Below are positions 29,850 through 61,686 of a stretch of 64,000 nucleotides of DNA, in pieces. Both the position numbers and the translations under genes were made by a program. The notes below the pieces were generated by a model. The model did not search any database and was not told the DNA's origin. It saw only the letters and a list, made by a program, of their open reading frames with translations. The stretch comes from Candidatus Brocadia pituitae (GTDB lineage Bacteria > Planctomycetota > Brocadiia > Brocadiales > Brocadiaceae). Each line of letters begins with the position of its first letter. Position 1 is the stretch's first letter. The stretch spans positions 1,620,613 to 1,684,612 of the forward strand of contig AP021856.1 of the NCBI GenBank assembly GCA_017347445.1, written 5' to 3'.

Positions 29850-29936
29850 TGCAGTTAATTTCGGATTTCGAATTTCGAAATCCAGGTTTCTGTTTTGCAT
29901 TCGAATTTCGGGTTTCGGGCTTCGAATTTATTATCG

Positions 29937-31853: not shown

Positions 31854-31869
31854 CCTCTGTCAACCAAAA

Positions 31870-32208: not shown

Positions 32209-32313
32209 GTTTTGCCTCATTCATGTTTCTGTAATAATGTAATATTTTCTAAGAATTTCAAACGCTTTTTCTATCATCTCCGCGCTCTCTGCGACCTCTG
32301 CGGTAAAATTATT

Positions 32314-35300
32314 TTATGTGGCTTCAAGTCTTTTGGGAAACCATTGGTAGAGGGCAGGGATCACGAAAAGGGTTAAAAAACTCGAAAAGCATACTCCACC
32401 AACGATCACTGTCGCCAATGGTTTCTGTACCTCCGCCCCTATATCCGTAGATATGGTCATCGGCAATAGCCCAATAATATCGGTTATGACGGTTATCAGT
32501 ACGGGTCTCAGTCGCCTTGTAGCGGCCTCTACGATCGTATCTCTTGTTTCCTTACCTTTTTGAAGATATTCATTAATACACGACACCATAACGGTGCCAT
32601 TTAACACGCATAGACCAAACAGTGAGATAAATCCCACCCCTGCAGAAACACTCAACGGCATGCCCCTTAAGAATAGTGCCACAATCCCTCCGGTAGCGGC
32701 AAAAGGAACATTTATATAAATAAGAATAGCATTTTTAAAGGAACGGAAACTCATGAAAAGAAGGATGAAGATTAATCCCATGGAAATGGGAATAACGATT
32801 GCCATCCGATTCCGCGCACGCTGCATGTTCTCAAACTGACCACCCCAGTCCAGGTAATATCCTGCGGGGATATCCACACCTTCCCGGATCTTCCTTTTTG
32901 CCTCTGCTACAAAGCTGCCGATATCCCTGTCCCGCACATTACACTCTACAACGATACGGCGGTGTCCGTTCTCACGGTTGACCTGGGCATGTCCCTCTTC
33001 AACAAAAATATCCGCCAGTTGGATGAGCGGCACACGCACACCACCCGGGGCGCTAATCAGGATATTTTTTATTTCCTCTATATTGTCCCTTGCCTCTTCG
33101 GAAAAACGGACTATGAGGTCGAATCGCATCTGCTCTTCCAGCACCTGTGATGCCGCCCTGCCGCCGATTGCCGTAGTGATAACATCCTGTATATCCGACA
33201 CGTTGATACCATAACGGGCAATGGCGGTCCGGTCAATTTTTATCTGTATCACCGGCAACCCTGCCACCTGTTCACCTTTCACATCCTCGGCTCCCGGTAC
33301 ATGCGAAACAACTCGTTCGATCTCCCCCGCCTTTGACTTTAATACCGCATAATCCTCGCCAAAAAGTTTAATGGCGACATCAGAACGAACACCGGCTATT
33401 AACTCACTGACCCTGAGCTCAATGGGCTGTGAAAAACTATACTGCATGCCAGGAATCTTTTTCAAATCCTCTTCCATACGGGCAATGAGGCCACCCTTGG
33501 TCCTGGCCGTCTGCCATGTATCCTTCGGCTTGAGCATTACGAACACATCACTGATCTCCTGTCCCATGGGGTCCGTGGCAATTTCTGCCCTTCCGGTCTT
33601 GGATACAACGGTCTCAACCTCCGGATATTTCATGAGAGTTTTCTCTATGAGCGTAGAGAGTTCTACCGAAGCCTTTAAAGAGACGCTGGGCAGTCTCCGT
33701 GCGTTGATTGCTATGGCGCCTTCATCCAATTCGGGCATAAATTCAGAACCTAAAAATGGAATAAGGACAAGGCTTGAAAGAAAGCACGAGGCTGCAATAA
33801 TTAAGGTGATCCTGGGATGGAACACAATCTTTTGTAATAACGGCCTGTAACGGTTCTTCAGGAACAACATTATGCGATTATCCATTTCCTCAGTATGCTC
33901 CTTTGCCTTTACCCCTTTTTTAAAAATAAGGGAGCTAAGAGTGGGCATAATAACCAGGGCAACGAAAAGTGAACTCAGCATGGCAAGGCTGACGGTAAGG
34001 GCTACAGGCCTGAACATCTTGCCTTCAACACCCTGTAAAGTCAGGAGCGGCACATAGATGATAATGATAATGCCCACGGCGAAGAAGATGGGACGTCCCA
34101 CCTCTTGAGCTGCACGGAGTATTGTCTCCGTGTGACCATCACTCCTTTTTCTCAAGGTCAGGCGCTGGACAATATTTTCCACCGTGCAAACTGAACCATC
34201 AGTAATGTTACCAAACCCAAGTGAACCAATACTCATTACCGTAGCGGCAATCCCCAGGTGATACATGCCTGAAAAGGTTAAAACGACCGTTAAAGGAACA
34301 GAGAAAGCAATAAGGAGTGAGACTCGCCAGTTGCCTACCGTTAACGTAAGGACTATGATTATCAGGATAATGCCGAAAATGACGTTGCTTATAACGGTAT
34401 GAATAACGTCGTTGACCAGGGCAGCCCGATCATAAAACGGCACGATATCAACGCCTTTTGGCAAATTCTGCCTGATCTCCTCAACCTTCTGTTTTACCCT
34501 TTCCACCACGGTGCGGCTATTCTCACCCTTGAGCATCATGGCGATACCCGTAACAACCTCTCCCTTGCCGTCTTTGGTAACCGCCCCATAACGCACCTCT
34601 GGACCCACCACCACATCGGCAATATTTTTAATATAAATGGGGGTACCTTCTGCCGTTGCATGGACGACAATATTTTCAATGTCTTGTATGGTATGAATAA
34701 GTCCTATACCCCTTATGAAATATTGTTCAGAGGAATGTTCAATGTATTGCCCACCGGCATTGGCATTATTGGATGCCAGGGCGTCAAAGACCTGCCGGAG
34801 AGCAATATCATAGGTGATGAGCTTTTTGGGATCCACCAGCACTTGGTACTGCTTTACAAAACCGCCGAAGCTGTTGATCTCAATAATCCCTGGTGTGGTC
34901 AGGAGTCTGGGTTTAATTATCCAGTCCTGGATGGTCCTGAGTTCCATGGTATCTTTGCCCTCACCGGCAACTACATATTGATAAATCTCACCAAGTCCCG
35001 TGCTAATCGGCCCCATGATAGGCTGGGCATTGAAAACCTTCGGTAGTTGCTCTTTTGCTGTTTGTAAACGCTCCAAGACCAATTGGCGGGCAAAATAGAT
35101 GTTTACATGGTCAGCAAAAACCACCGTAACCTGTGAGAGCCCTGACTTTGAAAGGGAACGAGTCTCCACAACGTTGGGTAATCCACCCATGGAGAACTCA
35201 ATGGGGAAGGTAATGAGTTTTTCCACTTCAAGAGGACCAAGTCCTGATACCTCAGTATTAATCTGCACCTGGTTTGTGGTAACATCAGGGACGGCATCGA

Positions 35301-35406
35301 CCGGCAAACGCATAATGTAGTATAAACCTACTCCTAGAATGACACCTATCACGATAATAACAAGGAAACCCTGTTTTAAGGCATATTCGATAAGCCGGTT
35401 GATCAT
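32314..35406 (-). CDS. Heavy-metal RND efflux pump, CzcA/CusA-type (system 2)
   Basis: A 1030-residue pump starting at ATG 35406, which overlaps the end of its adaptor gene. The HME-RND block RLPVDAVPDVTTNQVQINTE is present, and the 12-helix, two-loop layout is intact. Helix 4 is unusual: GFGNITDGSVCTVEN has lost the first Asp of the DFG...DGA...EN motif and carries a Cys. This is neither the CzcA nor the CusA pattern, so metal specificity is open. With the adaptor at 35411-36751 and the TolC protein at 37028-38362 it forms a complete tripartite system. Confidence 0.92.
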   Translation of the reverse strand: MINRLIEYALKQGFLVIIVIGVILGVGLYYIMRLPVDAVPDVTTNQVQINTEVSGLGPLEVEKLITFPIEFSMGGLPNVVETRSLSKSGLSQVTVVFADHVNIYFARQLVLERLQTAKEQLPKVFNAQPIMGPISTGLGEIYQYVVAGEGKDTMELRTIQDWIIKPRLLTTPGIIEINSFGGFVKQYQVLVDPKKLITYDIALRQVFDALASNNANAGGQYIEHSSEQYFIRGIGLIHTIQDIENIVVHATAEGTPIYIKNIADVVVGPEVRYGAVTKDGKGEVVTGIAMMLKGENSRTVVERVKQKVEEIRQNLPKGVDIVPFYDRAALVNDVIHTVISNVIFGIILIIIVLTLTVGNWRVSLLIAFSVPLTVVLTFSGMYHLGIAATVMSIGSLGFGNITDGSVCTVENIVQRLTLRKRSDGHTETILRAAQEVGRPIFFAVGIIIIIYVPLLTLQGVEGKMFRPVALTVSLAMLSSLFVALVIMPTLSSLIFKKGVKAKEHTEEMDNRIMLFLKNRYRPLLQKIVFHPRITLIIAASCFLSSLVLIPFLGSEFMPELDEGAIAINARRLPSVSLKASVELSTLIEKTLMKYPEVETVVSKTGRAEIATDPMGQEISDVFVMLKPKDTWQTARTKGGLIARMEEDLKKIPGMQYSFSQPIELRVSELIAGVRSDVAIKLFGEDYAVLKSKAGEIERVVSHVPGAEDVKGEQVAGLPVIQIKIDRTAIARYGINVSDIQDVITTAIGGRAASQVLEEQMRFDLIVRFSEEARDNIEEIKNILISAPGGVRVPLIQLADIFVEEGHAQVNRENGHRRIVVECNVRDRDIGSFVAEAKRKIREGVDIPAGYYLDWGGQFENMQRARNRMAIVIPISMGLIFILLFMSFRSFKNAILIYINVPFAATGGIVALFLRGMPLSVSAGVGFISLFGLCVLNGTVMVSCINEYLQKGKETRDTIVEAATRRLRPVLITVITDIIGLLPMTISTDIGAEVQKPLATVIVGGVCFSSFLTLFVIPALYQWFPKRLEAT

Positions 35407-35410
35407 GTCG

Positions 35411-36751
35411 TTAGTGTACGCACCCCTCCCCAAACTTTTCCTTCATGATTCCGGATTTGAGCAGGAAAGCCCCCTTAACAACCACGCTATCGTTCTTGCT
35501 TAAGCCACTCACAACTTTCACATGGCCATTTATCCGCGTACCCAAGGTCACATCCCGTCTTAAAAAAAGTCCCTCGTGAAGGGGCACAAAGACAAAATAT
35601 TCTTGTCCGTCCGCCTGAACGGCTTTAGCAGGCACAATGGGAGCACTATCTGCTTTCTCCGATTGATATAACAGCAACACCTTGGCAAACATTCCCGGTT
35701 TCAATTTTTCATGGCGATTGTCAACCTCTGCACGAACCTTTACGGTCCGCGTCTTTTCATCAACGGTAACTCCAATATACGTAACAATCCCCTCAAATTG
35801 TTCGTCCGGGTAAGAGGCAACTGATATCATTACCTTATTTCCCGGCTGAACCATGGAAATATCTTTTTCGTAGATATCAAACCATACCCACAGATTGGTG
35901 AGGTCAGAAATGGTGACAACCGGCGTAAAGGCGCCCTTGAGTTCACCAATGGCTACATTTTTTTCAATCACCGTACCATCAAAGGGGGCCGAAAGGATAA
36001 ACAGTGAGGATACCTGGTCCTCTGCTATACCCTGGATGTCATCCTCCACCTGACCCATGAGTATTAACTTCTCTTTTAGCGCTTTTAACTCTATCTGCGC
36101 CTGTTCGTACGTGCTCTCCGCTTCCAGAAAATGTTTTGTGGATGAAATCTTTTGTTTATAGAGAGACTTTTCCCTGGAATAGTTCTTTTTTGCCATTCTT
36201 AACATTGCCATCGCTTTCTTATAATTAGCCCGGAACTCTCCCAGTTCAACACTATCCAATACGGCCAGCTTCTGTCCTTTCTTCACATGATCTCCCCAGT
36301 CCACAAACAACTCCTTAACGACCCCGGATACCCTTGGGGAAACGATAACAAAGCGGTCCCGGTTAGGCGCTATCTCACCTGTTGCCTTATGAGTTACCTC
36401 TATGTCAAACAACTCAACGTTTTCGACGGTTATAATCTCCCCTAGTATCGATGTATCGACCTTGACTGCCCCGACCTCATAACGACAACCGTCACAGTCA
36501 ATAATGGAGAGATTGTGCTCACATTGCCTTTTTAATAATTCTTCGTAACTGCTGTCTTTCATGACAGGATTACACAAGACACATCCACTTTCTGGGACAC
36601 CATGTTCAGGACACATTTTCCCTTTATCTGAATTCTGACAACCTTGATGTGCAGCAACATTTGCAATGCAAAAGATTCCCATGCATAAAAGAAGTATCAT
36701 AAAACTAATCATTCGGATGTTCCATGATTGTAAATAATTCATACGTTGCAC
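35411..36751 (-). CDS. RND efflux periplasmic adaptor with Cys-rich metal-binding N-terminus (system 2)
   Basis: A 446-residue adaptor. A signal or anchor segment (about 12-34) precedes a Cys/His-rich module (about 38-95): CQNSDKGKMCPEHGVPESGC, LCNP, then CEHNLSIIDCDGC. This resembles heavy-metal-binding zinc-ribbon-like modules of CusB-type adaptors. Membrane-fusion, hairpin and barrel domains follow. The 3' end overlaps the start of its pump, so translation is coupled. It may sequester metal in the periplasm and hand it to the pump. Confidence 0.9.
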   Translation of the reverse strand: MQRMNYLQSWNIRMISFMILLLCMGIFCIANVAAHQGCQNSDKGKMCPEHGVPESGCVLCNPVMKDSSYEELLKRQCEHNLSIIDCDGCRYEVGAVKVDTSILGEIITVENVELFDIEVTHKATGEIAPNRDRFVIVSPRVSGVVKELFVDWGDHVKKGQKLAVLDSVELGEFRANYKKAMAMLRMAKKNYSREKSLYKQKISSTKHFLEAESTYEQAQIELKALKEKLILMGQVEDDIQGIAEDQVSSLFILSAPFDGTVIEKNVAIGELKGAFTPVVTISDLTNLWVWFDIYEKDISMVQPGNKVMISVASYPDEQFEGIVTYIGVTVDEKTRTVKVRAEVDNRHEKLKPGMFAKVLLLYQSEKADSAPIVPAKAVQADGQEYFVFVPLHEGLFLRRDVTLGTRINGHVKVVSGLSKNDSVVVKGAFLLKSGIMKEKFGEGCVH

Positions 36752-37027
36752 GTTCCCTCTTAAGTAAATGTTAGAAATTTAAAAATTCGTATCATAGCGT
36801 ACCAGACAACTCCCAGGATCCCTCTTTTTTAAGGGGAACTTGCGGAAATCCCCCTATGGCTGGTTCAATCTTGCAGATTGAACCATGCATTTGAAGGATA
36901 CTCTAAAGCCTGTGCTGTAAGACGGAATTATATCAAACGCTTCGGTCCAATCGTGAACAATTGAGCCAGCGAAAGAACACGGTGTAAAGGTTGACAATGG
37001 CCTAATGAAAATATCTTCTTATCGCCA

Positions 37028-38362
37028 TTATTGCTCACGTATCTTCGTTACCGCCAGTCTTTCAATATCAGCAATGAACAGATTTAAACTTTTTAGAGAT
37101 GCAATGTAGGAAATCCTTGTTTCTGCCCATGTCCTTTGGGCATCCAGGAGGTCGATGTAATCAAACTCCCCCTCTCTGTATCCTCTGGTAATTAACTTCA
37201 GGGATTCTTCCGCCTTTGGCAGAATTTTATCCCTATACTCAATGGTGCGTTTCCGTTCTACGTTGTATGAATTAAAATTTTTTCGTAACTGAAATAGCAG
37301 TTCATTATACACTGACTGGTTTTCATTTTTTGCTTTTTTTGAAAGAGCTTTATTTCTTTGTATATTACCCTGATTACGATTAAAAAATGGGGCCGGTATC
37401 TCAACACCTACCTGCACGGTGTCTATGTTATCCAATGAGAGCCTTTTATAGCCAGCAGACACATTGATATCGGGTATCACCCGTCTCTTTTCCAATGACA
37501 ATTGTGTTTCCGCTATTTCGATATTCTTCTTGGACGCCTTAAGGAATGGTTGATTGTTATTCATTTTTAGTTCAAGCTCAGAAAGCGACAACTCCACGGG
37601 TCTTGACAAAAGCATTCCCGTTACTCCATGAACGATCTCATCCGGAATACCCATTACCGTTTGTAACTCCTTAATCGAATTTTGAAGATTTCCTTCTGCT
37701 TGGGAGACGAGATTTCTTGCCTTTGACCATTCAACCTCCGCCCTGAGGACATTGGTAATAGCCACTTCTCCCGCATCAAACCTGAGTTTTTCGCTTCCAT
37801 AAATCCCTTTTGCAATTTCCTCCGTTTCCTTCGCTATAGTCAACCCTTCCTGATCACCGACAACCATATAAAACGCTTTTTTTGTGTCGGCAACAACACT
37901 TAAAAAAGCAACTTCACGTTCGAACTCATTTTTTTCTTTTCCCTTTTCACTGACCCTGATTCCTAGTCCTCTCTTGCCCCCCGTAATGATGGGCTGAGTT
38001 ACGGCCACGAGGTTCTGACTTTGATTTAATCCGATTTCATTGTCAGGAATTTCTTCTGCTAAAAACTGAAGAACGGGATTAGGATATAATTTCGATTGCC
38101 GCAGCGAACCCAAAGCGGCTTCTACCTGATCCCTGGTCGATTGCAAGAAAGGATTCTTTTCAATGGCAATACGAATGGCCTCTTCGAGCGAAATTTTTTT
38201 GTTTGATAATTGATCATCCTTGTCCCGGGCTTTGACAGGAAGATCCTTCCCAAAGGCTAGTAACCAAAAACTTGGCAAAAAAATAGAGACATAAACGAGC
38301 ATGATAAAAAAAATGAATCCGGCTTTCTGAAGATGATGTTTAAAATCAAAATGCAAATCCAT
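37028..38362 (-). CDS. TolC-family outer-membrane efflux protein (CzcC/CusC-type)
   Basis: A 444-residue protein with a signal or anchor helix (about 15-37) and two repeated TolC domains. The first contains ISLEEAIRIAIEKNPFLQST. The second includes FFNRNQGNIQRNKA, a hallmark of CzcC-like proteins, and both have long alpha-helical coiled coils. It forms the outer-membrane tunnel of the efflux system. As the only TolC-type gene in the window it may serve both RND systems. It is the most upstream gene of the main efflux operon. Confidence 0.92.
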   Translation of the reverse strand: MDLHFDFKHHLQKAGFIFFIMLVYVSIFLPSFWLLAFGKDLPVKARDKDDQLSNKKISLEEAIRIAIEKNPFLQSTRDQVEAALGSLRQSKLYPNPVLQFLAEEIPDNEIGLNQSQNLVAVTQPIITGGKRGLGIRVSEKGKEKNEFEREVAFLSVVADTKKAFYMVVGDQEGLTIAKETEEIAKGIYGSEKLRFDAGEVAITNVLRAEVEWSKARNLVSQAEGNLQNSIKELQTVMGIPDEIVHGVTGMLLSRPVELSLSELELKMNNNQPFLKASKKNIEIAETQLSLEKRRVIPDINVSAGYKRLSLDNIDTVQVGVEIPAPFFNRNQGNIQRNKALSKKAKNENQSVYNELLFQLRKNFNSYNVERKRTIEYRDKILPKAEESLKLITRGYREGEFDYIDLLDAQRTWAETRISYIASLKSLNLFIADIERLAVTKIREQ

Positions 38363-47622: not shown

Positions 47623-48603
47623 ATGAAGAAAAAGGGCATAAAATATTTACTGGTAACGATGGGGATTATTCTCCCCGTTTTTTCCATGGTAATCCATCTC
47701 CGGTCGGGGAATGCACAGAATCAAATCAGCGGAAAAGAGAAAAGTACGGAGGTGCAATCGGCTCGAAAAAAGAAGGCGGTCAGTTTCACAAAGGATGTTT
47801 TACCCTTATTTGTAAAGCCGAAAAAGCAGGGCAAATTGGAATCCGTTCCTTGCATCCATTGTCATTTTTCCAGTCTGTCTCTAGCAAATGACGGCATACC
47901 GGAAAATGCGTGGCACCAACTTAGCTTAGGCTCGTACAGAGACATCATGTATGGTGCTGATGGGGGGATAGAGCAGATTATTGATCTCGAAAATCCCAAA
48001 GAAAGCAGTCTGCTTGTTGTGCTGAAGGGCGAGGGTGATGAATCCCGTATGCCATACAGAGGCCCTTTCTTTTCAAAAAAAGAAATTGCCATCATTCAAA
48101 GATGGATTGAAGAGGGGGCAAAGGACGACACCCCCGCTCCTGATTTTAATCGGGATGTGCTCCCTTTGCTAACAAAACCAGTGAATGGCAGTATGGCCTG
48201 CAGCGATTGCCACTATAATAACAACGGCGCGACTTCCAAGGAGCGCACCGAATCACAGTCGTGTCTTGATCTGTCCAGATGGGAAGGCATAATCTCCGGT
48301 GCAGAGGGAAATATACACGAGGCAATCATAGACCTGGCAACTCCCGCAGACAGTCTGATCTTAAAACGTCTGCGTGGTCAGAAAACGGGGGAACTGCCGG
48401 AAGAAGATCATCGGATGCCCTTTGGTGGACCGTACTTTACGGAATACGAGATACAGAAAATCGAACGCTGGATAGCGAGTGGTGCTAAAGGTCCCAATGG
48501 CGAAGACCCCAGTGAGGCCGATATCAGTGATGCCGGGGAATGTCTGGGCGGCAGTGGTTCTGGCAGTGGCAGCGGCTCAGGCAGTGGTAGTGAAAATGAG
48601 TAG
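47623..48603 (+). CDS. Exported diheme c-type cytochrome with Gly-Ser tail
   Basis: A 326-residue protein with an N-terminal signal (about 7-25). It has two homologous planctomycete-type cytochrome domains, each opening with a (D)VLPLF/LxKP pattern. Heme motifs are CIHCH (about residue 86) and CSDCH (about 193). Each domain also carries an RMP(F/Y)RGPFF- or RMPFGGPYF-type segment whose Met may be the distal ligand. The tail is GGSGSGSGSGSGSGSGSENE. It follows the helical protein with a 30-base gap, so the two are probably co-expressed. It may pass electrons at the cell surface. Confidence 0.82.
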   Translation: MKKKGIKYLLVTMGIILPVFSMVIHLRSGNAQNQISGKEKSTEVQSARKKKAVSFTKDVLPLFVKPKKQGKLESVPCIHCHFSSLSLANDGIPENAWHQLSLGSYRDIMYGADGGIEQIIDLENPKESSLLVVLKGEGDESRMPYRGPFFSKKEIAIIQRWIEEGAKDDTPAPDFNRDVLPLLTKPVNGSMACSDCHYNNNGATSKERTESQSCLDLSRWEGIISGAEGNIHEAIIDLATPADSLILKRLRGQKTGELPEEDHRMPFGGPYFTEYEIQKIERWIASGAKGPNGEDPSEADISDAGECLGGSGSGSGSGSGSGSENE

Positions 48604-51271: not shown

Positions 51272-51460
51272 ATGAATATCATCAATAAGACAAAAACATA
51301 TGCCGGTTCACTGCTTACCATTGCCGGTGGTGTGGGCGCAGTCCTGGCTGGGGCATATCTGTTTTCCAGAATCAGGGAAAGACAAGAGAAGGAAACCCGG
51401 CTTGAAAAAATAGAGCAAATACTCCTGAAACTGGCGGAGGTACAGAAAAAGAAGGGATGA
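51272..51460 (+). CDS. Small membrane protein, copy 2
   Basis: A 62-residue paralogue of 50119-50307 (one membrane helix, then a charged amphipathic helix). It sits between the helical protein gene and the ATPase, overlapping the latter by ATGA, so translation is coupled. This fits a stoichiometric accessory subunit. Function is unknown. Confidence 0.65.
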   Translation: MNIINKTKTYAGSLLTIAGGVGAVLAGAYLFSRIRERQEKETRLEKIEQILLKLAEVQKKKG

Positions 51461-53559
51461 AGTTTCGTATTGTTCACAATCTTCCGCAGAGGATGAGGAT
51501 TACTCTCGTCTTGCCTAAAAGGCATATTCCGGACAATTCTCAGATAGAAAACTTGTTTTTCGCTGTTGATGGAGTTCATAAGGTGTCTTTCAATGGTCGA
51601 ACCAGGGGCCTATTGATTAGATACAACGGTGATGGTGCTGTGAGAGTTGCCTTGTTAAAGATAATAAAAGAGGCACCTTTAATATTTGTAACAAAAGAAA
51701 ATATTAAACATAATAGACTTGAACAGAAAAAAAAGGCAGTGGTGTTGTCGGGAGCTTTGTTGGTTGCGAGACCAATGATACCTTTCATGCTAGCGCCATT
51801 CTTTGCACTGTATGGCGCCATGCCTGTCCTGAAAAAAGGTTTCAGGGCAACTCTGAAAAGACGCCTAAGCGTTGATACCCTTGACTCTGCAGCGATAGGT
51901 ATTTCATTGCTGAGGGGGGATTACCTGACTGCAAGTTTCATAACATTCTTTCTGAAGGTGGGCGATTACCTCGAAGAGCGGATACGTCAAAAATCAAGGG
52001 AAAGTCTTTCAAAGATGTTCCAGAATCAGGATGGGTGGGCGTGGATAAAGAGGAATGGTTATGAAACGAAGGTACATATAAAAGATATAGTTACAGGCGA
52101 CCATGTAGTGGTAAGAACGGGTAGCAGCATTCCTGTGGATGGTATTGTAGTCGAGGGTGTGGCGCTGGTCAATCAGTCGTCAATGACAGGCGAACCATTG
52201 CCTGTTTCCAAAATGGCTGGATTAATGGTGTATGCAGGTACCGTACTGGAAGAAGGCCTTCTAACAGTAAAGTCGATAAGAGTAGGTGATGCAACAAGGG
52301 TCTCCAAAATAATCAAGGTGATTGAGGAATCGGAAGGTTCGAAGGCAGATGTGCAAAACCATGCAGAAATGCTTGCAAACAAGATTGTTCCCTATAGCTT
52401 TTTATTGAGCGGGCTCACATATCTCTTTTCAGGTAATCCATTAAAGGCAGCCTCAGTACTGCTGGTAGATTACTCATGCTCCATCAAATTGTCTACCCCT
52501 TTGACACTTATGTCGGCAATGATAGTTGCCTCAAAGCGTGGTGTTCTCATAAAAGGCGGCAGATTCATAGAAAAACTAGCGCAGGCAAACATCTTTGTGT
52601 TTGACAAGACAGGAACCCTTACTGAGGCAAAGCCAAAAGTGTTAGATCTCATTCCTTTCAACGGTTTTAACCGGGAATATCTGTTGAAAAATGTGGCGTG
52701 TGTGGAAGAGCATTTCCCACATCCGGTGGCAACTGCCGTGGTGAAAAGGGCGGAGGACGAAGGGCTTGACCATGAGGAGAACCATGCCGAAGTTGAATAT
52801 ATTCTTGCCCATGGCATTGCATCAAGAATTGAAGGTAAAAGGATACTGGTGGGGAGCAAACACTTTGTATGCGAAGACAATAAGATTCGTGTGCAGCGTG
52901 AAGAGCCAGTGATAAAAGATTTTATGGACAGGGGATATTCAATACTGTATGTGGCCGTGGAAGATACGCTGGCAGGTGTTGTCGTCATTGAAGATCAGGT
53001 AAGAGAAGATGCGCAAAGATTTCTCAAGACACTTAAGGATTTGTGTGTGGGGCGCATTATCATGCTTACGGGTGACAATGATGCTACTGCACGGCATGTG
53101 GCAAAAAGACTTGGGATTGAGGAATACCACGCCCAGCTCCTTCCGGAAAAAAAGAGAGAAATAGTTAAGGATTTAAAAGACAATGGCTATGTTGTTGCAA
53201 TGGTTGGAGACGGTATCAATGATTCCCCTGCTCTATCGTATGCAGATATTGGCATCTCTCTGAAGCATGGTGCAGATATCGCCAGAGAGGCCTGTGATAT
53301 TTTGCTTTTAGATGCAGCGCTCGAAGGAATTCTTGAGGCAAGGGAGATTGCACAGGATGCCATGTTGCGCATCAAAAAGAATTTCAGATATATCATCGGA
53401 ATTAACAGCGCCTTGATGGGTCTTGGTATTGCAGGGATGATAACTCCGGTAGCTTCTGCGTTTATGCATAATGCAACAACAATTCTCGTTACCGTAAATG
53501 CACTAAAACCTTATCGTATTACTTCGCATAGTCAAAGAGAAGACAATGGCCTGAAATAA
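51457..53559 (+). CDS. P1B-type heavy-metal-transporting ATPase
   Basis: A 700-residue pump. An N-terminal HMA_2-like domain (about 1-75, NLPQRMRITLVLPKRH) lacks CxxC. Actuator motif SMTGEPLPV, phosphorylation site FDKTGTLT (Asp near 382), the HP motif in HFPHPVATAV and the hinge GDGINDSPAL show an active P1B ATPase. In the metal-binding helix the usual CPC is replaced by DYSCSIKLSTP, so the ion is not predicted; Mn-, Co- or Fe-type relatives have non-CPC patterns. It should move metal out of the cytoplasm. It ends the duplicated module. Confidence 0.9.
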   Translation: MKFRIVHNLPQRMRITLVLPKRHIPDNSQIENLFFAVDGVHKVSFNGRTRGLLIRYNGDGAVRVALLKIIKEAPLIFVTKENIKHNRLEQKKKAVVLSGALLVARPMIPFMLAPFFALYGAMPVLKKGFRATLKRRLSVDTLDSAAIGISLLRGDYLTASFITFFLKVGDYLEERIRQKSRESLSKMFQNQDGWAWIKRNGYETKVHIKDIVTGDHVVVRTGSSIPVDGIVVEGVALVNQSSMTGEPLPVSKMAGLMVYAGTVLEEGLLTVKSIRVGDATRVSKIIKVIEESEGSKADVQNHAEMLANKIVPYSFLLSGLTYLFSGNPLKAASVLLVDYSCSIKLSTPLTLMSAMIVASKRGVLIKGGRFIEKLAQANIFVFDKTGTLTEAKPKVLDLIPFNGFNREYLLKNVACVEEHFPHPVATAVVKRAEDEGLDHEENHAEVEYILAHGIASRIEGKRILVGSKHFVCEDNKIRVQREEPVIKDFMDRGYSILYVAVEDTLAGVVVIEDQVREDAQRFLKTLKDLCVGRIIMLTGDNDATARHVAKRLGIEEYHAQLLPEKKREIVKDLKDNGYVVAMVGDGINDSPALSYADIGISLKHGADIAREACDILLLDAALEGILEAREIAQDAMLRIKKNFRYIIGINSALMGLGIAGMITPVASAFMHNATTILVTVNALKPYRITSHSQREDNGLK

Positions 53560-54015: not shown

Positions 54016-55683
54016 ATGAAGATTTTATTACCTACGGTGATTATGAACAGGCGTTTCGTGTTGTATCTGTCGTTATGGGGATCTCTTCTGTTTCAGGGTT
54101 TATCTTCCGGGCAATCCCTCATGGAAGAGGGTGAGCCTCCGGAAAATTACCAGCTACAGGTCTTCCTGGAGGAAGAGGAGGCTCTTGCCAAGATTTTTGC
54201 CGGATGCGATCAGGTTGAATCCGAGATCCTTACCCTCACACCTGAAGGACTTGGGTATTTTAAGGAGCTCCTGAAACGACCGGATATTGAGGCAACCTTT
54301 GAGGTCTTTGTCGGCAAAAAGGGGACGAAGATAGACCGGTATGCGATTATTACCGAGGAGATGGGCTGCTTTCATCCGATTACGTGGATTCTCAGCGCAA
54401 ATACGGAGGGAAAGGTTCTTGATATTGCCGTGATGATCTATCGGGAAAGTCGCGGGCATGAGGTCAGCCGGAAGCGGTTTCTGAAACAGTTTGAAGGCAA
54501 GTCCCTGAAAGACCCTCTTTCGACGAATAAAGACATTATTAAGATTACCGGCGCCACCACTTCGGTACAGGCAGTTTGCCGGGGTGTGAAAAAGATGCTC
54601 GCCTTTATTCATGAATTTTATCTTAATAAAAATCCTGTTTCTGCAACACGGGCGCATCGTTTGACTCCTGACGGAGTCCGCTCTATGAAGAAATCTCGCC
54701 GTCAGCTCTTTACTACTGCGAAAACTATTGAGGGGACAAAAGCAGTGGTGGCTGCTGAAGGAGATAGTGAAAGTCAGTTCTTTTCTCTGGCAGAAAAGGC
54801 ATTTCATGAGATAGAACGCGTTGAAAGGCTTTTCAGGAAAGAATTGCGGGCAATGAATAAGGTTGCCGCGAAGACTGCCTTTCCCTGCAGTGAAGAGGTG
54901 TTTCAGGTAATGAAGCGATGTTACCAATATGGGCTGGTTACCGGAGGCGCTTTTGACATAACGGTTTCGCCGTTATTAGAACAATGGGGGATCTACCGGG
55001 GTAAACGAAAAGAGATAAAGGAAGACAGGCTCGAAACTATTCTTCAGGCGGTCTCATATAAACATGTAAAAATCGATGATGATACTACCCGCATTTCTTT
55101 TGTACATAGGGATACAAAGATCGATCTGGGGCCTGTGGTAAAAGGGTATGCAATAGACAAGGCATTGGAATTTTTTCGTAATTCGGGGCTTACCAATGCT
55201 TGCATTAACTACGGAAGTATGAGCCGTATGCTCAATGCTCCTCCCGGAAAAGATGCCTGGAAAATAGGGGTGCCCCATCCCACGAACGGAGATGCGATCG
55301 TAGGTGTTCTCCGTATGGTGAATCAGGGGATTGCCTTTGTTGGTGATTATTTGAGGTATCCTGCGGTGCAGGCTGAATCATATATGCACCTCGTGGATCC
55401 GGAAACGGGAATGCCGGCAGGGGGTGATAAACTCGCCGTGATAGCGGCAGCGCCTACTGCAGAAGAGGCGGGAATTGTGGCAACCGTCCTTTTTGTGAAA
55501 GACACAAAGGAAAGAGAAAAAGTGGCAACGATCTTTCCGTCTGCCGGGTGGTTGATTGTTTCGGATAAACCTCAGCACAGTCTCGTGTTTGAGGGTTCTC
55601 CGGGCATGATGGAAAAGTTCAGGAAAGGAGAAGAAAAGGGTTTTAAGTACGGCAGGGGCGCAGGATGTTCCTTTAGCCCATGA
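54016..55683 (+). CDS. ApbE FAD:protein FMN transferase fused to an FMN-binding domain
   Basis: A 555-residue exported protein with a signal helix (about 10-32). The N-terminal FMN_bind domain (about 80-200) contains KITGATTSVQAV, the [ST]GA[TS]-type motif whose Thr receives FMN in RnfG/NqrC-like proteins. The C-terminal ApbE domain (about 230-545) has GAFDITVSPLLEQWG, the DLGPVVKGYAID block and HLVDPETGMPAGG. The usual GGD loop is changed to NYGSM. The enzyme and its substrate are thus on one chain. It is upstream of tlpA and of the encapsulin genes and may flavinylate a partner in that redox system. Confidence 0.88.
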   Translation: MKILLPTVIMNRRFVLYLSLWGSLLFQGLSSGQSLMEEGEPPENYQLQVFLEEEEALAKIFAGCDQVESEILTLTPEGLGYFKELLKRPDIEATFEVFVGKKGTKIDRYAIITEEMGCFHPITWILSANTEGKVLDIAVMIYRESRGHEVSRKRFLKQFEGKSLKDPLSTNKDIIKITGATTSVQAVCRGVKKMLAFIHEFYLNKNPVSATRAHRLTPDGVRSMKKSRRQLFTTAKTIEGTKAVVAAEGDSESQFFSLAEKAFHEIERVERLFRKELRAMNKVAAKTAFPCSEEVFQVMKRCYQYGLVTGGAFDITVSPLLEQWGIYRGKRKEIKEDRLETILQAVSYKHVKIDDDTTRISFVHRDTKIDLGPVVKGYAIDKALEFFRNSGLTNACINYGSMSRMLNAPPGKDAWKIGVPHPTNGDAIVGVLRMVNQGIAFVGDYLRYPAVQAESYMHLVDPETGMPAGGDKLAVIAAAPTAEEAGIVATVLFVKDTKEREKVATIFPSAGWLIVSDKPQHSLVFEGSPGMMEKFRKGEEKGFKYGRGAGCSFSP

Positions 55684-55874: not shown

Positions 55875-56396
55875 ATGTCTTACGTGTGTCATTTGAGAGC
55901 AGTCTTATGTTTCGCAGTATTTGCGATGCTGTCTTTAACGGGTGTCTCCTATGCGAAGGATCCGAAAGAGATTACGTCCACAGAGTTGAAAGAGGTTGTT
56001 CGGGCTAACAAGGATAAGATCGTGTTAGTGACATTCTGGGCAACGTGGTGCAAGGTCTGCCGGGAGCATCTTCCAGAACTCAACACTCTTTACAGGAAAT
56101 ACAAAGACAAGAACGTGGAAATTATAGGGGTATCGCTGGACGATAAACCGGAAGATGTTCAAGATTTTATTCAAAGTAAGGGGATTGATTTTCTTGTTTT
56201 CAGGGCAAGGGACAAAGAGGAGATGAGTTATGTTTACCAGGTAAAGAAAATCCCCATTATCTGCTATTACAAAAATGGGAAGCTCGAACACGTCGAGGAG
56301 GGTTATACCGATCCTGCACATATTGAGGAGGATCTGCGTAGTTGCCTGGAAGGCGCCAGGCCTCCCAGCAAAGATACCCGTACGCCATCGAAATAA
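55875..56396 (+). CDS. TlpA/ResA-type thioredoxin
   Basis: A 173-residue exported thioredoxin with a signal peptide (about 8-27, AVFAMLSLTGVSYA) and the active site WCKVC in FWATWCKVCREHLP. The cis-Pro is in KKIPIICYY. TlpA/ResA proteins reduce apocytochrome c cysteines before heme attachment. Two multiheme proteins follow downstream, so a role in their maturation is likely. A strong AAAGGAGGAG precedes the ATG. The tail ARPPSKDTRTPSK is low complexity. Confidence 0.9.
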   Translation: MSYVCHLRAVLCFAVFAMLSLTGVSYAKDPKEITSTELKEVVRANKDKIVLVTFWATWCKVCREHLPELNTLYRKYKDKNVEIIGVSLDDKPEDVQDFIQSKGIDFLVFRARDKEEMSYVYQVKKIPIICYYKNGKLEHVEEGYTDPAHIEEDLRSCLEGARPPSKDTRTPSK

Positions 56397-56798: not shown

Positions 56799-57965
56799 AT
56801 GAAGGTCTGCAGAAAATTTTGTAAAAAATATCACTTTGTCTGGATTTTTGCCCTGTCTGCCATTTTCTATCTGCCACAAAATACCTCTTCTGTCTATGCA
56901 AAGTGCACGAAAGAAAATGACTGTTTTTCGTGTCACTCTTCCCAGGAATTAAGGGATGTCCATAAGACGTGCCAATATCTGAATCAGGGATGTCTTTCCT
57001 GTCATGCGGTCCCTAAAAATCTGGCAACATCATCGCCTGATTCTTCCTGTAGTGGCAAGGGTGAAAAGGGTTCTGGTGGCGATCGAAAAGGGTGCCAGGG
57101 TTCATGTGAGGGAGAAAAGGGATGCAGTGGGGGAGGCAATGGTGTTTCTTCTGATGTACAGATGGGACGTGAGGACTGGGAAAAATTACAGCGATGTGTC
57201 CATGAAACTATCGAAAAATGCCGCGTAGGCAGAAAGTTCCTGGAGACGTATGGTCCCCTCGGTGTGGGGAGCCAGTGTGTTCCTGTCGATACCTTTGGAA
57301 TACCATCATGGGCAACCGTTGACATGATGGGAGAATCTGATAATGCCATCCATGCGCTCAAACGTGAAATTGCGCACATACCGCTCATTTACAAAGATTT
57401 CTGGCTCTTCTGGAGGGACATTGAAGCAAGCAGCAAGTGTGAAACTCCCCTGGATACCAGCGCTGCAATCGGGGCTGCTGTTGCTGCGGCCGCCCGTGAA
57501 GACGACCTGGTGTTTAACGGCTTGCCGGATATGCATATAGCAGGGTTATTGAATGTGGATGGCCGTAACATCGCGAAACTGAGCGACTGGTCGGTCATCG
57601 GCAACGGGTTTCAGGACGTGGTATCTGCGATTGAGAGGTTGAGAAGTACCGGCTTTCTCCCGCCGTATACGCTTGTCGTGAGTCCAAGGCTTTATGCGCT
57701 GCTCCACAAGGTGTATGAGCGCACGGGAAAACTAGAAATCGAAGCGGTAAAAGAGATGGTAAAAGGCGGTGTATACCAGAGCTCTGTGCTGAAAAAAGAT
57801 GTAGCCCTGGTTATGGCAGCCGGCAGGCAAAATGCAGATTTGGCAGTGGGAGGAAATTTTAAGGTCGAATACTGTGGACCGGAAAACCTGAACCATCGGT
57901 TCCGCGTAGTTGGCAGTTCTGTGCTCAGGATCAAGTGCCCGCAGGCGATTTGTACCATAGAATAA
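56799..57965 (+). CDS. Diheme cytochrome c-encapsulin fusion (shell protein)
   Basis: Start ATG 56799 is 8 bases after AAAAGGAGG. The 388-residue protein has a signal peptide (about 11-34), two heme sites CFSCH (42-46) and CLSCH (65-69), a Gly/Cys-rich linker (about 80-120, with Cys84, 99, 103 and 109) and an encapsulin HK97-like shell domain (about 121-388). The last is marked by REDWEKL, GRKFLETYGPLGVGSQ and VSPRLYALLHKVYER. Encapsulins assemble into hollow protein cages; a cytochrome-bearing form is known from anammox bacteria. Export suggests that the cage sits in the anammoxosome or another non-cytoplasmic space. Its likely cargo is the next gene. Confidence 0.9.
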   Translation: MKVCRKFCKKYHFVWIFALSAIFYLPQNTSSVYAKCTKENDCFSCHSSQELRDVHKTCQYLNQGCLSCHAVPKNLATSSPDSSCSGKGEKGSGGDRKGCQGSCEGEKGCSGGGNGVSSDVQMGREDWEKLQRCVHETIEKCRVGRKFLETYGPLGVGSQCVPVDTFGIPSWATVDMMGESDNAIHALKREIAHIPLIYKDFWLFWRDIEASSKCETPLDTSAAIGAAVAAAAREDDLVFNGLPDMHIAGLLNVDGRNIAKLSDWSVIGNGFQDVVSAIERLRSTGFLPPYTLVVSPRLYALLHKVYERTGKLEIEAVKEMVKGGVYQSSVLKKDVALVMAAGRQNADLAVGGNFKVEYCGPENLNHRFRVVGSSVLRIKCPQAICTIE

Positions 57966-58301
57966 ATAATTAGGTAGATTCTTAATGTTCATTTTTAAAC
58001 AGCTCTAATCTAGTAAAAGTTGCGCTTTACGAAGTACGATTTGAGACTTCAGCGTAAGCTCAGTCAAACGATAAAGGGGTGTGTAAATCGGTCATAACAC
58101 CCTCACTGCCCATATGGTAGGTCAGGCGTCCCCACATGACATTATGATGACAAGCGGGGACGCTTGATGTATAGGAATTTCAATTACCCCCCCCCATAAT
58201 CCCCCCGTTTACTTGGGGAAACAGGGGGGAAAGTAGCCGAAGGCCTAATTTATAAACTTGATTTGTTTTCGATAATGCTTATCCAGTTAAGGAAGTCGGA
58301 A
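57966..58301. repeat. Intergenic region with two hairpin repeats
   Basis: Between shell and cargo genes lie an inverted repeat AGGCGTCCCC ... GGGGACGCTT (58124-58165) and a second copy of the C-rich/G-rich hairpin (58185-58231), both preceded by short spacers. These may reduce read-through or stabilise transcripts, giving different levels of shell and cargo. That is inference. AAGGAAG precedes the cargo start. Confidence 0.6.
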
Positions 58302-60824
58302 ATGTTCAAACAATCACGAATTTACCTTCCGATGGTGATTGTGTGCCTCCTTTTTATTCTTAAGACAGGATACGCAGAGATCCCTTGTGTGACTGGAATC
58401 GATGGAGTTGTTTCCCTGGAAATGGAGGCGCGTCCGGTTGCCATTGATCTGAGGCCTGGTGTTTTTTTTGATGCATGGGGATATTGCAGAAAAGGTGAAA
58501 GACCTACGGTGCCTGGGCCTACCATAAAAGTGCGGGAAGGGACCAAAATCATGGTTCATTTTACCAATAAGCTGGCGGTGCCTGCCTCTTTACATCCTCA
58601 CGGGGTGAAATACACCGCTGCGAATGACGGCGCTCACATAGCAGGGAATCCCACCAGTACGGTTGAACCAGGGCATTCAAGGACGTATGAGTGGGATACG
58701 AGCGGCACGCCGGGTACGTGGTTTTACCACACCCATGCCCTGGAAATGGGCGGAGATGAGGGTCTCTCCCGGGGACTCTGGGGTGCATTGATTATCGAGC
58801 CAAAAGAAGATATTGCAAACCCGCCGGACAAAGAGTTTGTTGTCTTCATGCACTCATACATGGTGAACGGGACTGAGTATGAGGCTTTTAATGATAAATC
58901 CGGTGATATTGAGTTTATGAATGGAGACAGCTCTGCATTTCCCGGCTTGATCTGGAAGGCAAATGTGGGGGAGAAGGTAAGATTTCATGTAATCAATACA
59001 GCAGAGGAGATGCATACCTTTCATACGCACGGACATCGATGGATCGACAAGGCGAGCGGGGAGTTGATAGACAATGTTTCACTTGCTCCCTTTACATCGT
59101 ATGTTGCAGAATTTACAGCAGGGGAGGGGGTTGGCCCTGGAAATTGGGCATTTCACTGTCATTTTCATGAACACATGATGAACGGTATGTTTGGAATTTT
59201 TGTTGTGGAAAAAGAAAAGATGAATGCCTGGATGTCTCCTGATACAGAGAGTCTCCCAACCCTTGATTCAGCGCCTGGTTCGTTTGAATATCCCGATCCA
59301 TTGCTCAAGAACTTGTATGAGGATTTTGTAGGGTTGAAGCAAGGTGACGGACCGTGGGGTGAATTTTACCAGCCGATACCGTTTTACATGTATTTCAATC
59401 CAACGAGACATTATTTTCCGCCTGCTGCAGAAAGTTCAAACTATAAAGAACTCCTGAACAGATACAAGCCTGATCAGTGCGTCGAATGCCACGAAGAGTC
59501 TTCACCGGGAATTGTGGCTCAGTGGAAGGCATCAAATCATGCAAAACCGAAAAAAAACCGCGAGGTCTCAGCGGAGACACAGGAGATTGAGGAATTAATC
59601 GGTAAAGAGCTAAACAACTGGGAACCGGGGACAAAGAACGGGGTGTACTGTTCTTACTGCCATGGCGACAATCACGAGAAATTATTTATGCCTACCGTTG
59701 ATAACGCCTGTGGTACCTGTCATCCACGACAGGCGGAAGAGTTTGCAAAGGGGAGAGATCACGGCAGGCCAAGTCATCCCCAGAGTTGGGAGTCTACGGT
59801 ATCTGTACCCTGGTATGTGGAAAATTACCGGCGTGGCGAGCGGTATTCGATGATCGGGTGCGACCAGTGTCATCAGAATATGTCATCGTGTGACGACTGT
59901 CATAGCAAGCATCTCTTTTCTGTTGCAGATGCCCGTCGTCCGGAGGTGTGTTCCGGATGCCATATGGGACCAGACCATCCTGATTGGGAGAGTTACGAAC
60001 ATTCCCGGTGGGGGATCATGTATAAAATTTCTGGGGAGAAATGGAACTGGGACAAGAAACTCTCTGAGATTATTCCCGGTGTGGATTACCCCGCTCCAAC
60101 GTGTCAATATTGCCATATGTATGTTGGAAATGGCCAATGGGAGATGAATGTAGAAACGAAAGGGATATGGCGTATGGGGGTTATACCGCCCGCTGAAGTC
60201 GGGTTTAAATCGGGAATCAAGGATTTCCCCTATGGGATAAAGATGCCGCCCATGGACAGGAAGCTTGAAATCTACTCCGCGGAAAGCAAGACGAAACGAC
60301 GGTACTGGGTGGAACTCTGTTCGAAATGCCACAGCAGCAGATTTTCCAGCATGTGGCTTGACTCCCTGGATCAATATATGTTTGAATCGTGGAGACGGAT
60401 CGACGAGGCACAGCTCGTGGTAGAAGAACTCTTTGCCAAAGATATGATTAGACCGTCTCCGGAAGAAAGAGCGCCTTTTCCCTTGAGCGACTTAATTGTC
60501 AAACTGCTCAGCCCAAAGGAACTGGGGCCGGATGTGTACAGCCTGTTCAAAAAGACCAGCGGCCACTTGCCGGTAATTGGGCCTGTCCTTGGCGCCTACG
60601 CCTTGTTTACCCAGAAGGACGGGAATCCCAGCGGGGTAGAGCAGGAGTATGTTCAGATGTGGTTCTGGAACCATCTGCAGGGATACAAAGGCACCGCCCA
60701 TGCACAGCCGGATATCAGCTGGTGGTGGGGCACTGCTCAAACAATGGGGAATGTGACGCGGATCCGGGATGAAGCAGTGAATTTGCGGCGTTTAAAGAAC
60801 CTTGAAGAGGCAGTTAAAAAGTAA
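58302..60824 (+). CDS. Multicopper oxidase-octaheme HAO-like fusion (probable encapsulin cargo)
   Basis: From ATG 58302 (AAGGAAG before it), an 840-residue exported protein (signal about 5-25). Residues 30-305 form two cupredoxin domains with all four copper motifs: HPHG (98-101), HTH (143-145), HTHGH (241-245) and HCHFHEHMMNGM (285-296), the last fitting HCHx3Hx4M. Residues about 380-840 hold eight CxxCH sites (CVECH, CSYCH, CGTCH, CDQCH, CDDCH, CSGCH, CQYCH, CSKCH), as in octaheme hydroxylamine oxidoreductases. Such NIR-HAO fusions accompany anammox encapsulins and are thought to handle reactive nitrogen species such as hydroxylamine, NO or nitrite. No typical LTVGSLRR-like targeting tag is seen; the C-terminus ends RRLKNLEEAVKK. 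Confidence 0.9.
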   Translation: MFKQSRIYLPMVIVCLLFILKTGYAEIPCVTGIDGVVSLEMEARPVAIDLRPGVFFDAWGYCRKGERPTVPGPTIKVREGTKIMVHFTNKLAVPASLHPHGVKYTAANDGAHIAGNPTSTVEPGHSRTYEWDTSGTPGTWFYHTHALEMGGDEGLSRGLWGALIIEPKEDIANPPDKEFVVFMHSYMVNGTEYEAFNDKSGDIEFMNGDSSAFPGLIWKANVGEKVRFHVINTAEEMHTFHTHGHRWIDKASGELIDNVSLAPFTSYVAEFTAGEGVGPGNWAFHCHFHEHMMNGMFGIFVVEKEKMNAWMSPDTESLPTLDSAPGSFEYPDPLLKNLYEDFVGLKQGDGPWGEFYQPIPFYMYFNPTRHYFPPAAESSNYKELLNRYKPDQCVECHEESSPGIVAQWKASNHAKPKKNREVSAETQEIEELIGKELNNWEPGTKNGVYCSYCHGDNHEKLFMPTVDNACGTCHPRQAEEFAKGRDHGRPSHPQSWESTVSVPWYVENYRRGERYSMIGCDQCHQNMSSCDDCHSKHLFSVADARRPEVCSGCHMGPDHPDWESYEHSRWGIMYKISGEKWNWDKKLSEIIPGVDYPAPTCQYCHMYVGNGQWEMNVETKGIWRMGVIPPAEVGFKSGIKDFPYGIKMPPMDRKLEIYSAESKTKRRYWVELCSKCHSSRFSSMWLDSLDQYMFESWRRIDEAQLVVEELFAKDMIRPSPEERAPFPLSDLIVKLLSPKELGPDVYSLFKKTSGHLPVIGPVLGAYALFTQKDGNPSGVEQEYVQMWFWNHLQGYKGTAHAQPDISWWWGTAQTMGNVTRIRDEAVNLRRLKNLEEAVKK

Positions 60825-61048: not shown

Positions 61049-61152
61049 CGGTGCTACTTTCAGAATATTTACAGGAAAATCAGGTTGATTCCTTCCTCTA
61101 AAATGCATAAAATGAAGTTAGTTATTAGGAATATTTACAAAAAGGAGATAAC

Positions 61153-61375
61153 CGTGCGTATAACTGATATTCCTGAAATTGCTAAATTAAGTACGCAGGA
61201 AAAAATCCTGTTAGTTGAAGATATTTGGGACAGCATAGCTTTGGATGAGTCTGCAGTACCCATTCCACATAGCCACAGAGATGAATTGGACAGAAGGCTC
61301 AGAATTCATGAATCTGTTCCTGGAAACCTTTTAACTCTCGAAGAACTTCAGGCTAGAATAGAAAAAAGGAAATGA
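61153..61375 (+). CDS. Antitoxin of a ParE/RelE-type module (CHP02574-like)
   Basis: Start GTG 61153 after AAAAAGGAG. The 73-residue protein begins MRITDIPEIAKLSTQEKILL, then VEDIWDSIA, typical of the CHP02574/addiction-module component family whose helix binds and blocks the toxin. The TA pair overlaps by ATGA. A longer frame to 61085 has an unlikely extra N-terminus. Confidence 0.88.
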
Positions 61376-61686
61376 CGCACAACATCCGGTTTCTTCCAGA
61401 AGTAGAAGACGATGTTGTCCGTGTATATGCATGGTACGAAGCAAAATCGCCAGGCCTTGGAGAGGAATATCTGAGCATGTTTTATGCCTGTGTTAGTGAG
61501 ATTTCTAAGAATCCCTTGCTTTATCCAAAGGTTCATAACGAATTTCGCCGCCGTTTGTTGAGAAGATTTCCATACGCTATCTATTTTATGATAAGAGACG
61601 ACAAAATTGTTGTATCTGGACTTTTTCATTGTGCACGTGATCCACGCTCAATCAGAGCGAAATTGCACGATCGGGAAACACCATAA
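61372..61686 (+). CDS. ParE/RelE-family toxin
   Basis: A 104-residue RelE/ParE-fold protein: VRFLPEVEDDV-like strand and helix (FLPEVEDDVVRVYAWYE), GLGEEYLSMF, then the C-terminal strands RRFPYAIYFMIRDDKIVV and the FHCARDPRSI tail. Members either cleave mRNA on the ribosome or block gyrase; the family cannot be told apart by sequence here. The start overlaps the antitoxin stop by 4 bases. Confidence 0.9.
   Translation: MTHNIRFLPEVEDDVVRVYAWYEAKSPGLGEEYLSMFYACVSEISKNPLLYPKVHNEFRRRLLRRFPYAIYFMIRDDKIVVSGLFHCARDPRSIRAKLHDRETP

What the first reader, a model, noticed from the sequence alone, without database searches (positions are those of the whole stretch)
56799..60824. Encapsulin shell carrying its own c-type hemes next to a copper/octaheme cargo
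The shell protein has a Sec-type signal and two CxxCH sites before the HK97-like domain, so every subunit of the cage should bring two hemes. With 60 or more subunits per shell, over 100 hemes would surround a lumen probably holding the multicopper-octaheme enzyme encoded next. A conducting, exported nanocompartment is an unusual design. Diheme encapsulins with NIR-HAO-type cargo are known in anammox surveys; electron flow through the wall is inference.
Basis: partly seen in the sequence, partly recalled or inferred. Interest (0 to 1): 0.9.

Follow-up and report, generated by a model that had tools for sequence, protein, structure and literature searches.

The report
Heme-carrying protein cage of anammox bacteria
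This is a member of an already published kind of protein nanocage from ammonium-oxidising anammox bacteria, in which each shell subunit carries two hemes (most likely pointing inward) and the neighbouring gene encodes the copper- and eight-heme enzyme thought to be packed inside; relatives that use the same enzyme without shell hemes argue against the idea of a 'conducting wall'.

Summary
56799-57962 encodes a Sec signal, two CxxCH motifs and a full family 1 encapsulin shell domain. 58302-60821 encodes a copper-oxidase/octaheme fusion. This is the known anammox cEnc/'NIR-HAO' encapsulin (PMC6934571; PMC8346489), here in a near-complete Brocadia-type genome. So it is a new member of a known kind. 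The 'conducting wall' reading is not supported: the N-terminus of family 1 encapsulins lies inside the shell, so the hemes should sit in the lumen.

What I add: (1) The copper half is not NirK-like. It matches two-domain laccases, and all 12 T1/trinuclear ligands are present here. Five of 17 cargos that keep all eight hemes have lost trinuclear ligands. (2) The octaheme half is the nitrite-reducing HAOr type, without the cross-link tyrosine. (3) At least five relatives pair the same cargo with heme-less shells, so shell hemes are optional. (4) The published 'unfused' B. carolinensis shell does encode both heme motifs; one extra A breaks its signal peptide frame. (5) No classical targeting peptide was found on the cargo.

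Best guess: a lumenal, HAOr-type nitrogen-oxide-reducing chamber with shell hemes as electron buffer. Identity is near certain; function is inference.

The parts
55875..56396 (+). ResA/TlpA-like secreted thioredoxin (WATWCKVC motif), upstream neighbour; plausible apocytochrome c reductant
   Evidence: Pfam Thioredoxin_8 7.5e-19, NCBIfam ResA 1.6e-21 (below its curated cut-off); a homologue lies upstream of the shell gene in 11 relative loci, others often cut by contig ends
56783..56790 (+). Shine-Dalgarno-like AAAGGAGG before the shell gene
   Evidence: sequence
56799..56900 (+). signal peptide of the shell protein, residues 1-34
   Evidence: inspection of translation; signal-like N-termini in both heme-bearing and heme-less relatives
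56922..56936 (+). heme-binding motif 1, CFSCH, residues 42-46
   Evidence: conserved in related heme-bearing shells
56991..57005 (+). heme-binding motif 2, CLSCH, residues 65-69
   Evidence: conserved except CLSFH in one MAG
57006..57158 (+). Gly/Ser/Lys/Cys-rich linker, residues 70-120, variable in length and sequence
   Evidence: alignment
57159..57962 (+). family 1 encapsulin (HK97-type) shell domain, residues 121-388
   Evidence: Pfam 3e-57; NCBIfam encap_f1; 4pt2 6e-71
57966..58262 (+). intergenic stretch holding two kinds of dispersed genomic repeat (about 58045-58166 and 58164-58256)
   Evidence: 44 further partial matches in the same genome; folds more stably than shuffles, z -4.0
58302..58376 (+). 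signal peptide of the cargo, residues 1-25
   Evidence: inspection; signal-like N-termini in relatives
58476..59216 (+). two-domain laccase-type multicopper oxidase half, residues 59-305; T1 and trinuclear ligands H98 H100 H143 H145 H238 H241 H243 H285 C286 H287 H291 M296
   Evidence: two-domain laccases from 5e-37; ligand table
59298..60821 (+). octaheme HAOr-type half, residues 333-840, eight CxxCH, no cross-link tyrosine
   Evidence: 6h5l (HAO-like protein) 3.8e-160; eight motifs in 17 of 17 cargos

Best explanation
This is a cEnc-type family 1 encapsulin system of an anammox bacterium of the Brocadia group. SHOWN by sequence: a shell protein with a signal peptide and two c-type heme sites ahead of a complete HK97-type shell domain; a cargo with a signal peptide that fuses a two-domain laccase-type copper oxidase to an octaheme HAOr-type reductase; a ResA-like thioredoxin gene upstream. 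INFERRED: both proteins cross the anammoxosome membrane unfolded by Sec. Hemes are attached on the inner side with help from the ResA-like protein. The shell then assembles around the cargo, with the diheme domains hanging into the lumen on flexible linkers. Two-domain laccases and HAOs are both trimeric, so the cargo is probably a trimer with 24 hemes and up to 12 coppers. Nitrite, NO or hydroxylamine enters through shell pores and is reduced at the octaheme site, which lacks the tyrosine cross-link of oxidative HAOs. The diheme domains act as an internal electron store and relay. In this clade the intact copper site could also reduce O2. Identity confidence about 0.97; lumenal hemes about 0.85; reductive nitrogen-oxide detoxification as the main task about 0.4.
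For: Shell. Heme sites. Lumenal N-terminus of family 1 shells, and internalisation of N-terminally fused domains in Flp-fusion encapsulins: PMC8346489. Anammox cEnc systems reported as T=3 with Sec-like signal; encapsulin proteins found in anammoxosome proteomics (PMC6934571). Cargo octaheme half: 6h5l at 3.8e-160, no tyrosine at the cross-link region in any complete relative, eight CxxCH in 17 of 17. HAOr activity (nitrite to NO) and lack of the cross-link tyrosine: PMC12485887, PMC12758564. Copper half: two-domain laccases, all ligands present. A trimer is shown for a two-domain laccase (PMC10419308); the trimeric state of HAO is from general knowledge. Shell and cargo genes neighbours in nearly all relatives with enough sequence. 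ResA-like gene upstream.
Against: No activity, particle, heme stain or localisation could be tested. The cargo has no recognisable family 1 targeting peptide, and its C-terminus resembles that of the free HAOr, so encapsulation rests on gene adjacency and literature. Heme-less shells with the same cargo show the relay is not essential. The genome also encodes a free HAOr (L058, 45% identical to the cargo half), so the encapsulated one may do something else. Structure models were too poor to use (pLDDT 37 and 39).
Confidence: 0.6

Rival explanations
1. Conducting wall: the shell hemes form a relay that carries electrons through the protein shell between the lumen and the outside.
For: Two CxxCH per subunit; 60-180 subunits would give 120-360 hemes.
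Against: Family 1 N-termini are sequestered inside the shell. The diheme stretch is about 35 residues on a 50-residue flexible, poorly conserved linker. No CxxCH lies within the shell domain itself. Heme-less shells carry the same cargo.
Confidence: 0.05
2. Oxygen-scavenging chamber: the intact laccase-type copper site reduces O2 to water with electrons from the octaheme half and shell hemes, protecting the anaerobic organelle.
For: All 12 laccase T1/trinuclear ligands are present in the window and its nearest relatives; best matches are O2-reducing two-domain laccases. A laccase role was raised as a possibility in PMC6934571.
Against: Five of 17 cargos that keep all eight hemes have lost trinuclear ligands, including Kuenenia-group genomes, so it cannot be the family-wide function.
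Confidence: 0.2
3. Copper nitrite reductase (NirK-type) plus HAO cargo feeding NO into the anammox reaction, as the published name NIR-HAO implies.
For: Published annotation; weak NirK model score (TIGR02376, 51.5 bits). Lineages that lost T3 ligands but kept T1 and T2-type His could be NirK-like.
Against: The NirK score is far under its curated cut-off of 296; the T1 Cys lies in the second cupredoxin domain, not the first as in NirK; the window keeps a full trinuclear ligand set.
Confidence: 0.15
4. Iron storage or heme/iron reserve: the shells are the ~25 nm iron-rich particles seen in anammoxosomes.
For: Proposed in the literature (PMC8346489, PMC6934571); the closest solved shell is M. xanthus EncA, an iron-storing encapsulin.
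Against: No ferritin-like or ferroxidase cargo was recognised among the genes tested beside it; heme-less versions exist with the same cargo.
Confidence: 0.15

Closest known systems
Anammox cEnc / NIR-HAO family 1 encapsulin systems (PMC6934571; PMC8346489)
   Same: Sec signal, N-terminal diheme domain, family 1 shell, adjacent copper/octaheme fusion cargo, anammox host
   Different: 336 bp with dispersed repeats between shell and cargo in this genome; Cys-rich linker peculiar to this Brocadia subclade; copper half here keeps the full laccase ligand set
Flp-fusion encapsulins (Pyrococcus furiosus virus-like particle, 2e0z)
   Same: functional domain fused N-terminally to the shell and internalised on assembly
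   Different: ferritin-like domain rather than c-type hemes; no signal peptide (general knowledge)
Kuenenia HAOr (PMC12485887; solved HAO-like protein 6h5l; free homologue in this genome at L058)
   Same: octaheme protein without the tyrosine cross-link; 45% identity between cargo half and this genome's HAOr-type protein
   Different: not fused to a copper oxidase; the L058 gene lies about 160 kb from the only encapsulin gene
Two-domain small laccases (4m3h, 3cg8, 4n8u)
   Same: same domain order, T1 in the second domain, all trinuclear ligands
   Different: free enzymes, not fused to an octaheme protein

Membership tests
Family 1 encapsulin | HK97-type shell protein matching the family 1 profile over its whole length | tested here: met
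   Linocin_M18 profile positions 10-249 of 253, NF041155 above cut-off, 4pt2 6e-71
Family 1 encapsulin | self-assembly into an icosahedral shell | not testable with these tools
   reported for relatives as T=3 in PMC8346489; structure model failed
Family 1 encapsulin | cargo with C-terminal targeting peptide of the GSL/IGSL type (usual, not universal) | tested here: not met
   no [LIV]G[ST][LIV] match in the cargo or its 17 relatives; PMC6934571 notes anammox core cargos often lack the consensus
cEnc (cytochrome-fused) encapsulin | N-terminal diheme c domain plus Sec-like signal | tested here: met
   two CxxCH, signal by inspection, conserved in relatives
cEnc (cytochrome-fused) encapsulin | adjacent copper/octaheme fusion gene | tested here: met
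cEnc (cytochrome-fused) encapsulin | hemes covalently bound in the mature shell | not testable with these tools
   inferred from CxxCH plus export
Copper nitrite reductase NirK | T1 Cys/His/Met site in cupredoxin domain 1, curated model score reached | tested here: not met
   T1 Cys286 lies in domain 2; TIGR02376 51.5 bits against cut-off 296.3
Two-domain laccase | four HxH motifs plus HCHxxxHxxxxM with T1 in domain 2 | tested here: met
   H98/H100, H143/H145, H238/H241/H243, H285-C286-H287, H291, M296
Two-domain laccase | O2 reduction with four coppers bound | not testable with these tools
   needs purified protein
HAOr (reductive octaheme HAO) | eight CxxCH and no cross-link tyrosine | tested here: met
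   eight motifs; TRIRDEA region without Tyr, as in 6h5l
HAOr (reductive octaheme HAO) | nitrite reduction to NO | not testable with these tools
   shown only for the free Kuenenia enzyme in the literature

The most novel reading that the evidence does not exclude
The lumen is an electron capacitor: hundreds of tethered shell hemes store electrons and let one cargo trimer couple octaheme nitrogen chemistry to four-electron O2 reduction at the intact trinuclear copper site. Lineages tune this by gaining or losing shell hemes or copper ligands, and one genome may build mosaic shells from its tandem heme-less and heme-bearing genes.
Probability: 0.15. Interest if true: 0.75.

Novelty: new member of a known kind. 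Interest (0 to 1): 0.4.

Why it matters
The function of anammox encapsulins is still unknown in the papers read here. This survey changes how it should be asked. The octaheme half is invariant, while the shell hemes and the trinuclear copper ligands each come and go, so octaheme chemistry is the likely core function and the other two are accessories. The natural heme-less/heme-bearing pairs, and the copper-intact/copper-degenerate pairs, give ready-made comparisons for experiment. The label 'NIR' for the copper half, and the published 'unfused' state of the B. carolinensis shell, should be re-examined.

Tried and rejected
Structure prediction of shell and cargo with the permitted shallow alignments gave pLDDT 37 and 39, so no fold search was run; the fold rests on sequence matches to solved shells. 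A targeting peptide search on 18 cargos found none. I looked for a separate small diheme protein beside heme-less shells that would replace the fused domain and found none convincing. Encapsulins at 15 loci from the wider phylum were searched for fused CxxCH: none in the frames recovered, two loci not resolved. The diheme stretch has only weak matches in the PDB (NrfH 0.027). I asked whether shell-heme loss follows copper-ligand loss: no simple link (heme kept with ligands lost in G031 and G035; heme absent with ligands intact in G003 and G010). A promoter/terminator scan found no more sites than shuffles. A cyt d1 (NirS) family search in the genome gave only weak, partial matches; NirK was not settled (one search failed).
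Full report
OBSERVATION. The N-terminus reads as a Sec/signal peptidase I signal (cleavage probably after A34), followed by CFSCH (42-46) and CLSCH (65-69). In shuffles of residues 35-120 two or more CxxCH occur in 0.04%. Residues 121-388 are a complete family 1 encapsulin shell domain by Pfam, NCBIfam and comparison with solved shells (4pt2, EncA, 6e-71). The next gene, 58302-60821, encodes an 840-residue protein with a signal peptide, a two-domain copper oxidase half and an octaheme half with eight CxxCH.

SETTING. The window lies in a single-contig 4.08 Mb genome estimated 100% complete that has only one encapsulin gene. Its nearest named relatives are Brocadia sp. WS118 and Ca. Brocadia carolinensis (92-93% identity in the shell domain). 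Of 75 class genomes held, 23 have a match to the encapsulin model. Upstream lie a ResA-like thioredoxin and an ApbE/FMN-binding fusion protein; ResA homologues precede the shell gene in 11 relative loci. Between shell and cargo this genome has 336 bp containing two kinds of repeat that recur at about 40 other places in the genome. In several relatives the two genes nearly touch (stop and start within a few bases). Whether the two genes are co-transcribed here is therefore open.

WHAT IS KNOWN. Anammox encapsulins fused to a diheme cytochrome and paired with a 'NIR-HAO' fusion are published (PMC6934571; PMC8346489), including the Sec-like signal, reported T=3 assembly, presence of encapsulin in anammoxosome proteomics, and proposed roles in detoxification of NO, hydroxylamine and hydrazine or in iron storage. 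A 2020 paper listed in PMC12445922 carries the hydroxylamine-stress idea in its title (not read). The window is therefore a new member of a known kind.

WHERE THE HEMES SIT. PMC8346489 states that the N-terminus of family 1 encapsulins is sequestered inside the shell, and that N-terminal Flp fusions are internalised on assembly. The window's diheme stretch is joined to the shell domain by about 50 residues of poorly conserved, Gly/Ser/Lys/Cys-rich linker, and the shell domain has no CxxCH. The simplest reading is a lumen lined with tethered hemes (120 in T=1, 360 in T=3), not a conducting wall. Only one non-motif His (H55) is conserved in the diheme stretch, so at most one heme can be bis-His from within that stretch; the second may be open or use another ligand (inference).

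SHELL HEMES ARE OPTIONAL. Heme-less shells with a signal-like N-terminus accompany the same copper/octaheme cargo in G003, G010, G032, G029 (Ca. Kuenenia hertensis) and G044; G040 has a heme-less shell gene and a heme-bearing one in tandem. No separate small diheme gene was found to replace the fused domain. On a tree of the shell domains, starred branches force at least two changes of state; heme-less G029 is sister to heme-bearing G035 with 99/97 support. In G040 the encapsulin parts of the two tandem copies are nearly identical in DNA (97.1% over the last 378 bases) while the N-terminal parts do not align; the downstream copy is split over two contigs (C143, C269), so its continuity is inferred. 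G021 keeps a truncated encapsulin fragment directly after its ResA gene, upstream of its full heme-bearing shell gene, which suggests the tandem arrangement was once more common.

A LIKELY ERROR IN THE LITERATURE. PMC6934571 describes the B. caroliniensis shell as not fused to a cytochrome. In the 26THWARD assembly both CxxCH motifs are present in frame with the shell domain, but the signal peptide coding region carries seven A where the window has six, which breaks the frame after the start codon. This is probably why the fusion was missed; whether the extra base is real cannot be told from one assembly.

THE CARGO. The copper half matches two-domain laccases (5e-37 for the best; no NirK among the 60 best). 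Its NirK model score is 51.5 bits against a cut-off of 296. All T1 and trinuclear ligands of laccases are present: H98, H100, H143, H145, H238, H241, H243, H285, C286, H287, H291, M296. Of 17 cargos with the octaheme half, three (Kuenenia-type G031 and G029, and G035) have lost H145 and H287, one ligand of each type 3 copper by the assignment I use. The published SgfSL assignment of His105 and His290 to T3alpha fits that; the rest of the assignment is general knowledge of multicopper oxidases. G032 has lost H287 and a T1 His; G044 has lost most. On a tree of the octaheme half, ligand loss needs at least two changes. By contrast all eight heme motifs are kept in 17 of 17. The octaheme half is closest to 6h5l, an HAO-like protein (3.8e-160), is 45% identical to the free HAOr-type protein of the same genome (L058), and lacks the cross-link tyrosine, the mark of reductive HAOs.

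HOW IT MOST LIKELY WORKS. Shown: the gene content and motifs above. Inferred: export of both proteins into the anammoxosome, heme attachment there, assembly with hemes and cargo inside, a trimeric cargo (two-domain laccases and HAOs are trimers), reduction of small nitrogen oxides that reach the octaheme site through shell pores, and an electron-buffering role for the shell hemes. How the cargo is retained is unknown, since no targeting peptide was found. In this clade O2 reduction at the copper site is possible, but it cannot be the family-wide function.

LIMITS. Structure predictions failed for lack of alignment depth. Several relatives are metagenome-assembled, so truncated or frame-broken genes (G022, G023, G021 fragment, B. 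carolinensis) may be assembly faults. Presence of NirK in this genome was not settled. Signal peptides were judged by eye. Function was not tested.

Noticed in passing
57966-58262: The gap between shell and cargo genes holds two kinds of dispersed repeat (about 58045-58166 and 58164-58256) with about 40 further partial matches across the genome (78-93% identical); some look like C-rich/G-rich palindromes.
   Followed up: partly
L029:3475-4605 and L047 (Ca. Brocadia carolinensis 26THWARD): Shell gene carries both heme motifs, but seven A instead of six in the signal peptide region break the frame; this probably explains the published 'unfused' annotation.
   Followed up: yes
L042:1-1767 (minus strand) and L056:3070-3447: Tandem heme-less and heme-bearing encapsulin genes in one anammox MAG (G040), nearly identical in the shell domain DNA, different N-termini.
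   Followed up: yes
L037:8649-9149 (minus strand): A truncated encapsulin fragment (167 codons) directly after the ResA gene and upstream of the intact heme-bearing shell gene; a similar truncation point is seen in L035/L055.
   Followed up: partly
L052:3062-4219: Second heme motif of one Brocadia MAG reads CLSFH instead of CxxCH, leaving a single motif.
   Followed up: no
61085-61686: Downstream gene pair with a ParE-type toxin and a small probable partner, 97-99% identical to the pair in Brocadia WS118 although the neighbouring shell and cargo are 91-93% identical.
   Followed up: no
54016-55683: Probable secreted ApbE-type flavin transferase fused to an FMN-binding domain, conserved near the encapsulin in many relatives.
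   Followed up: partly
47623-48603: Protein with two CxxCH and no clear family (weak match to CTI); similar-looking diheme proteins lie upstream of the encapsulin in L048, L049 and L035.
   Followed up: no
23212-38362: Two RND efflux sets (ACR_tran, HlyD, OEP) with a group II intron maturase gene (26775-28082) between parts; a heavy-metal P-type ATPase follows at 51457-53559.
   Followed up: no
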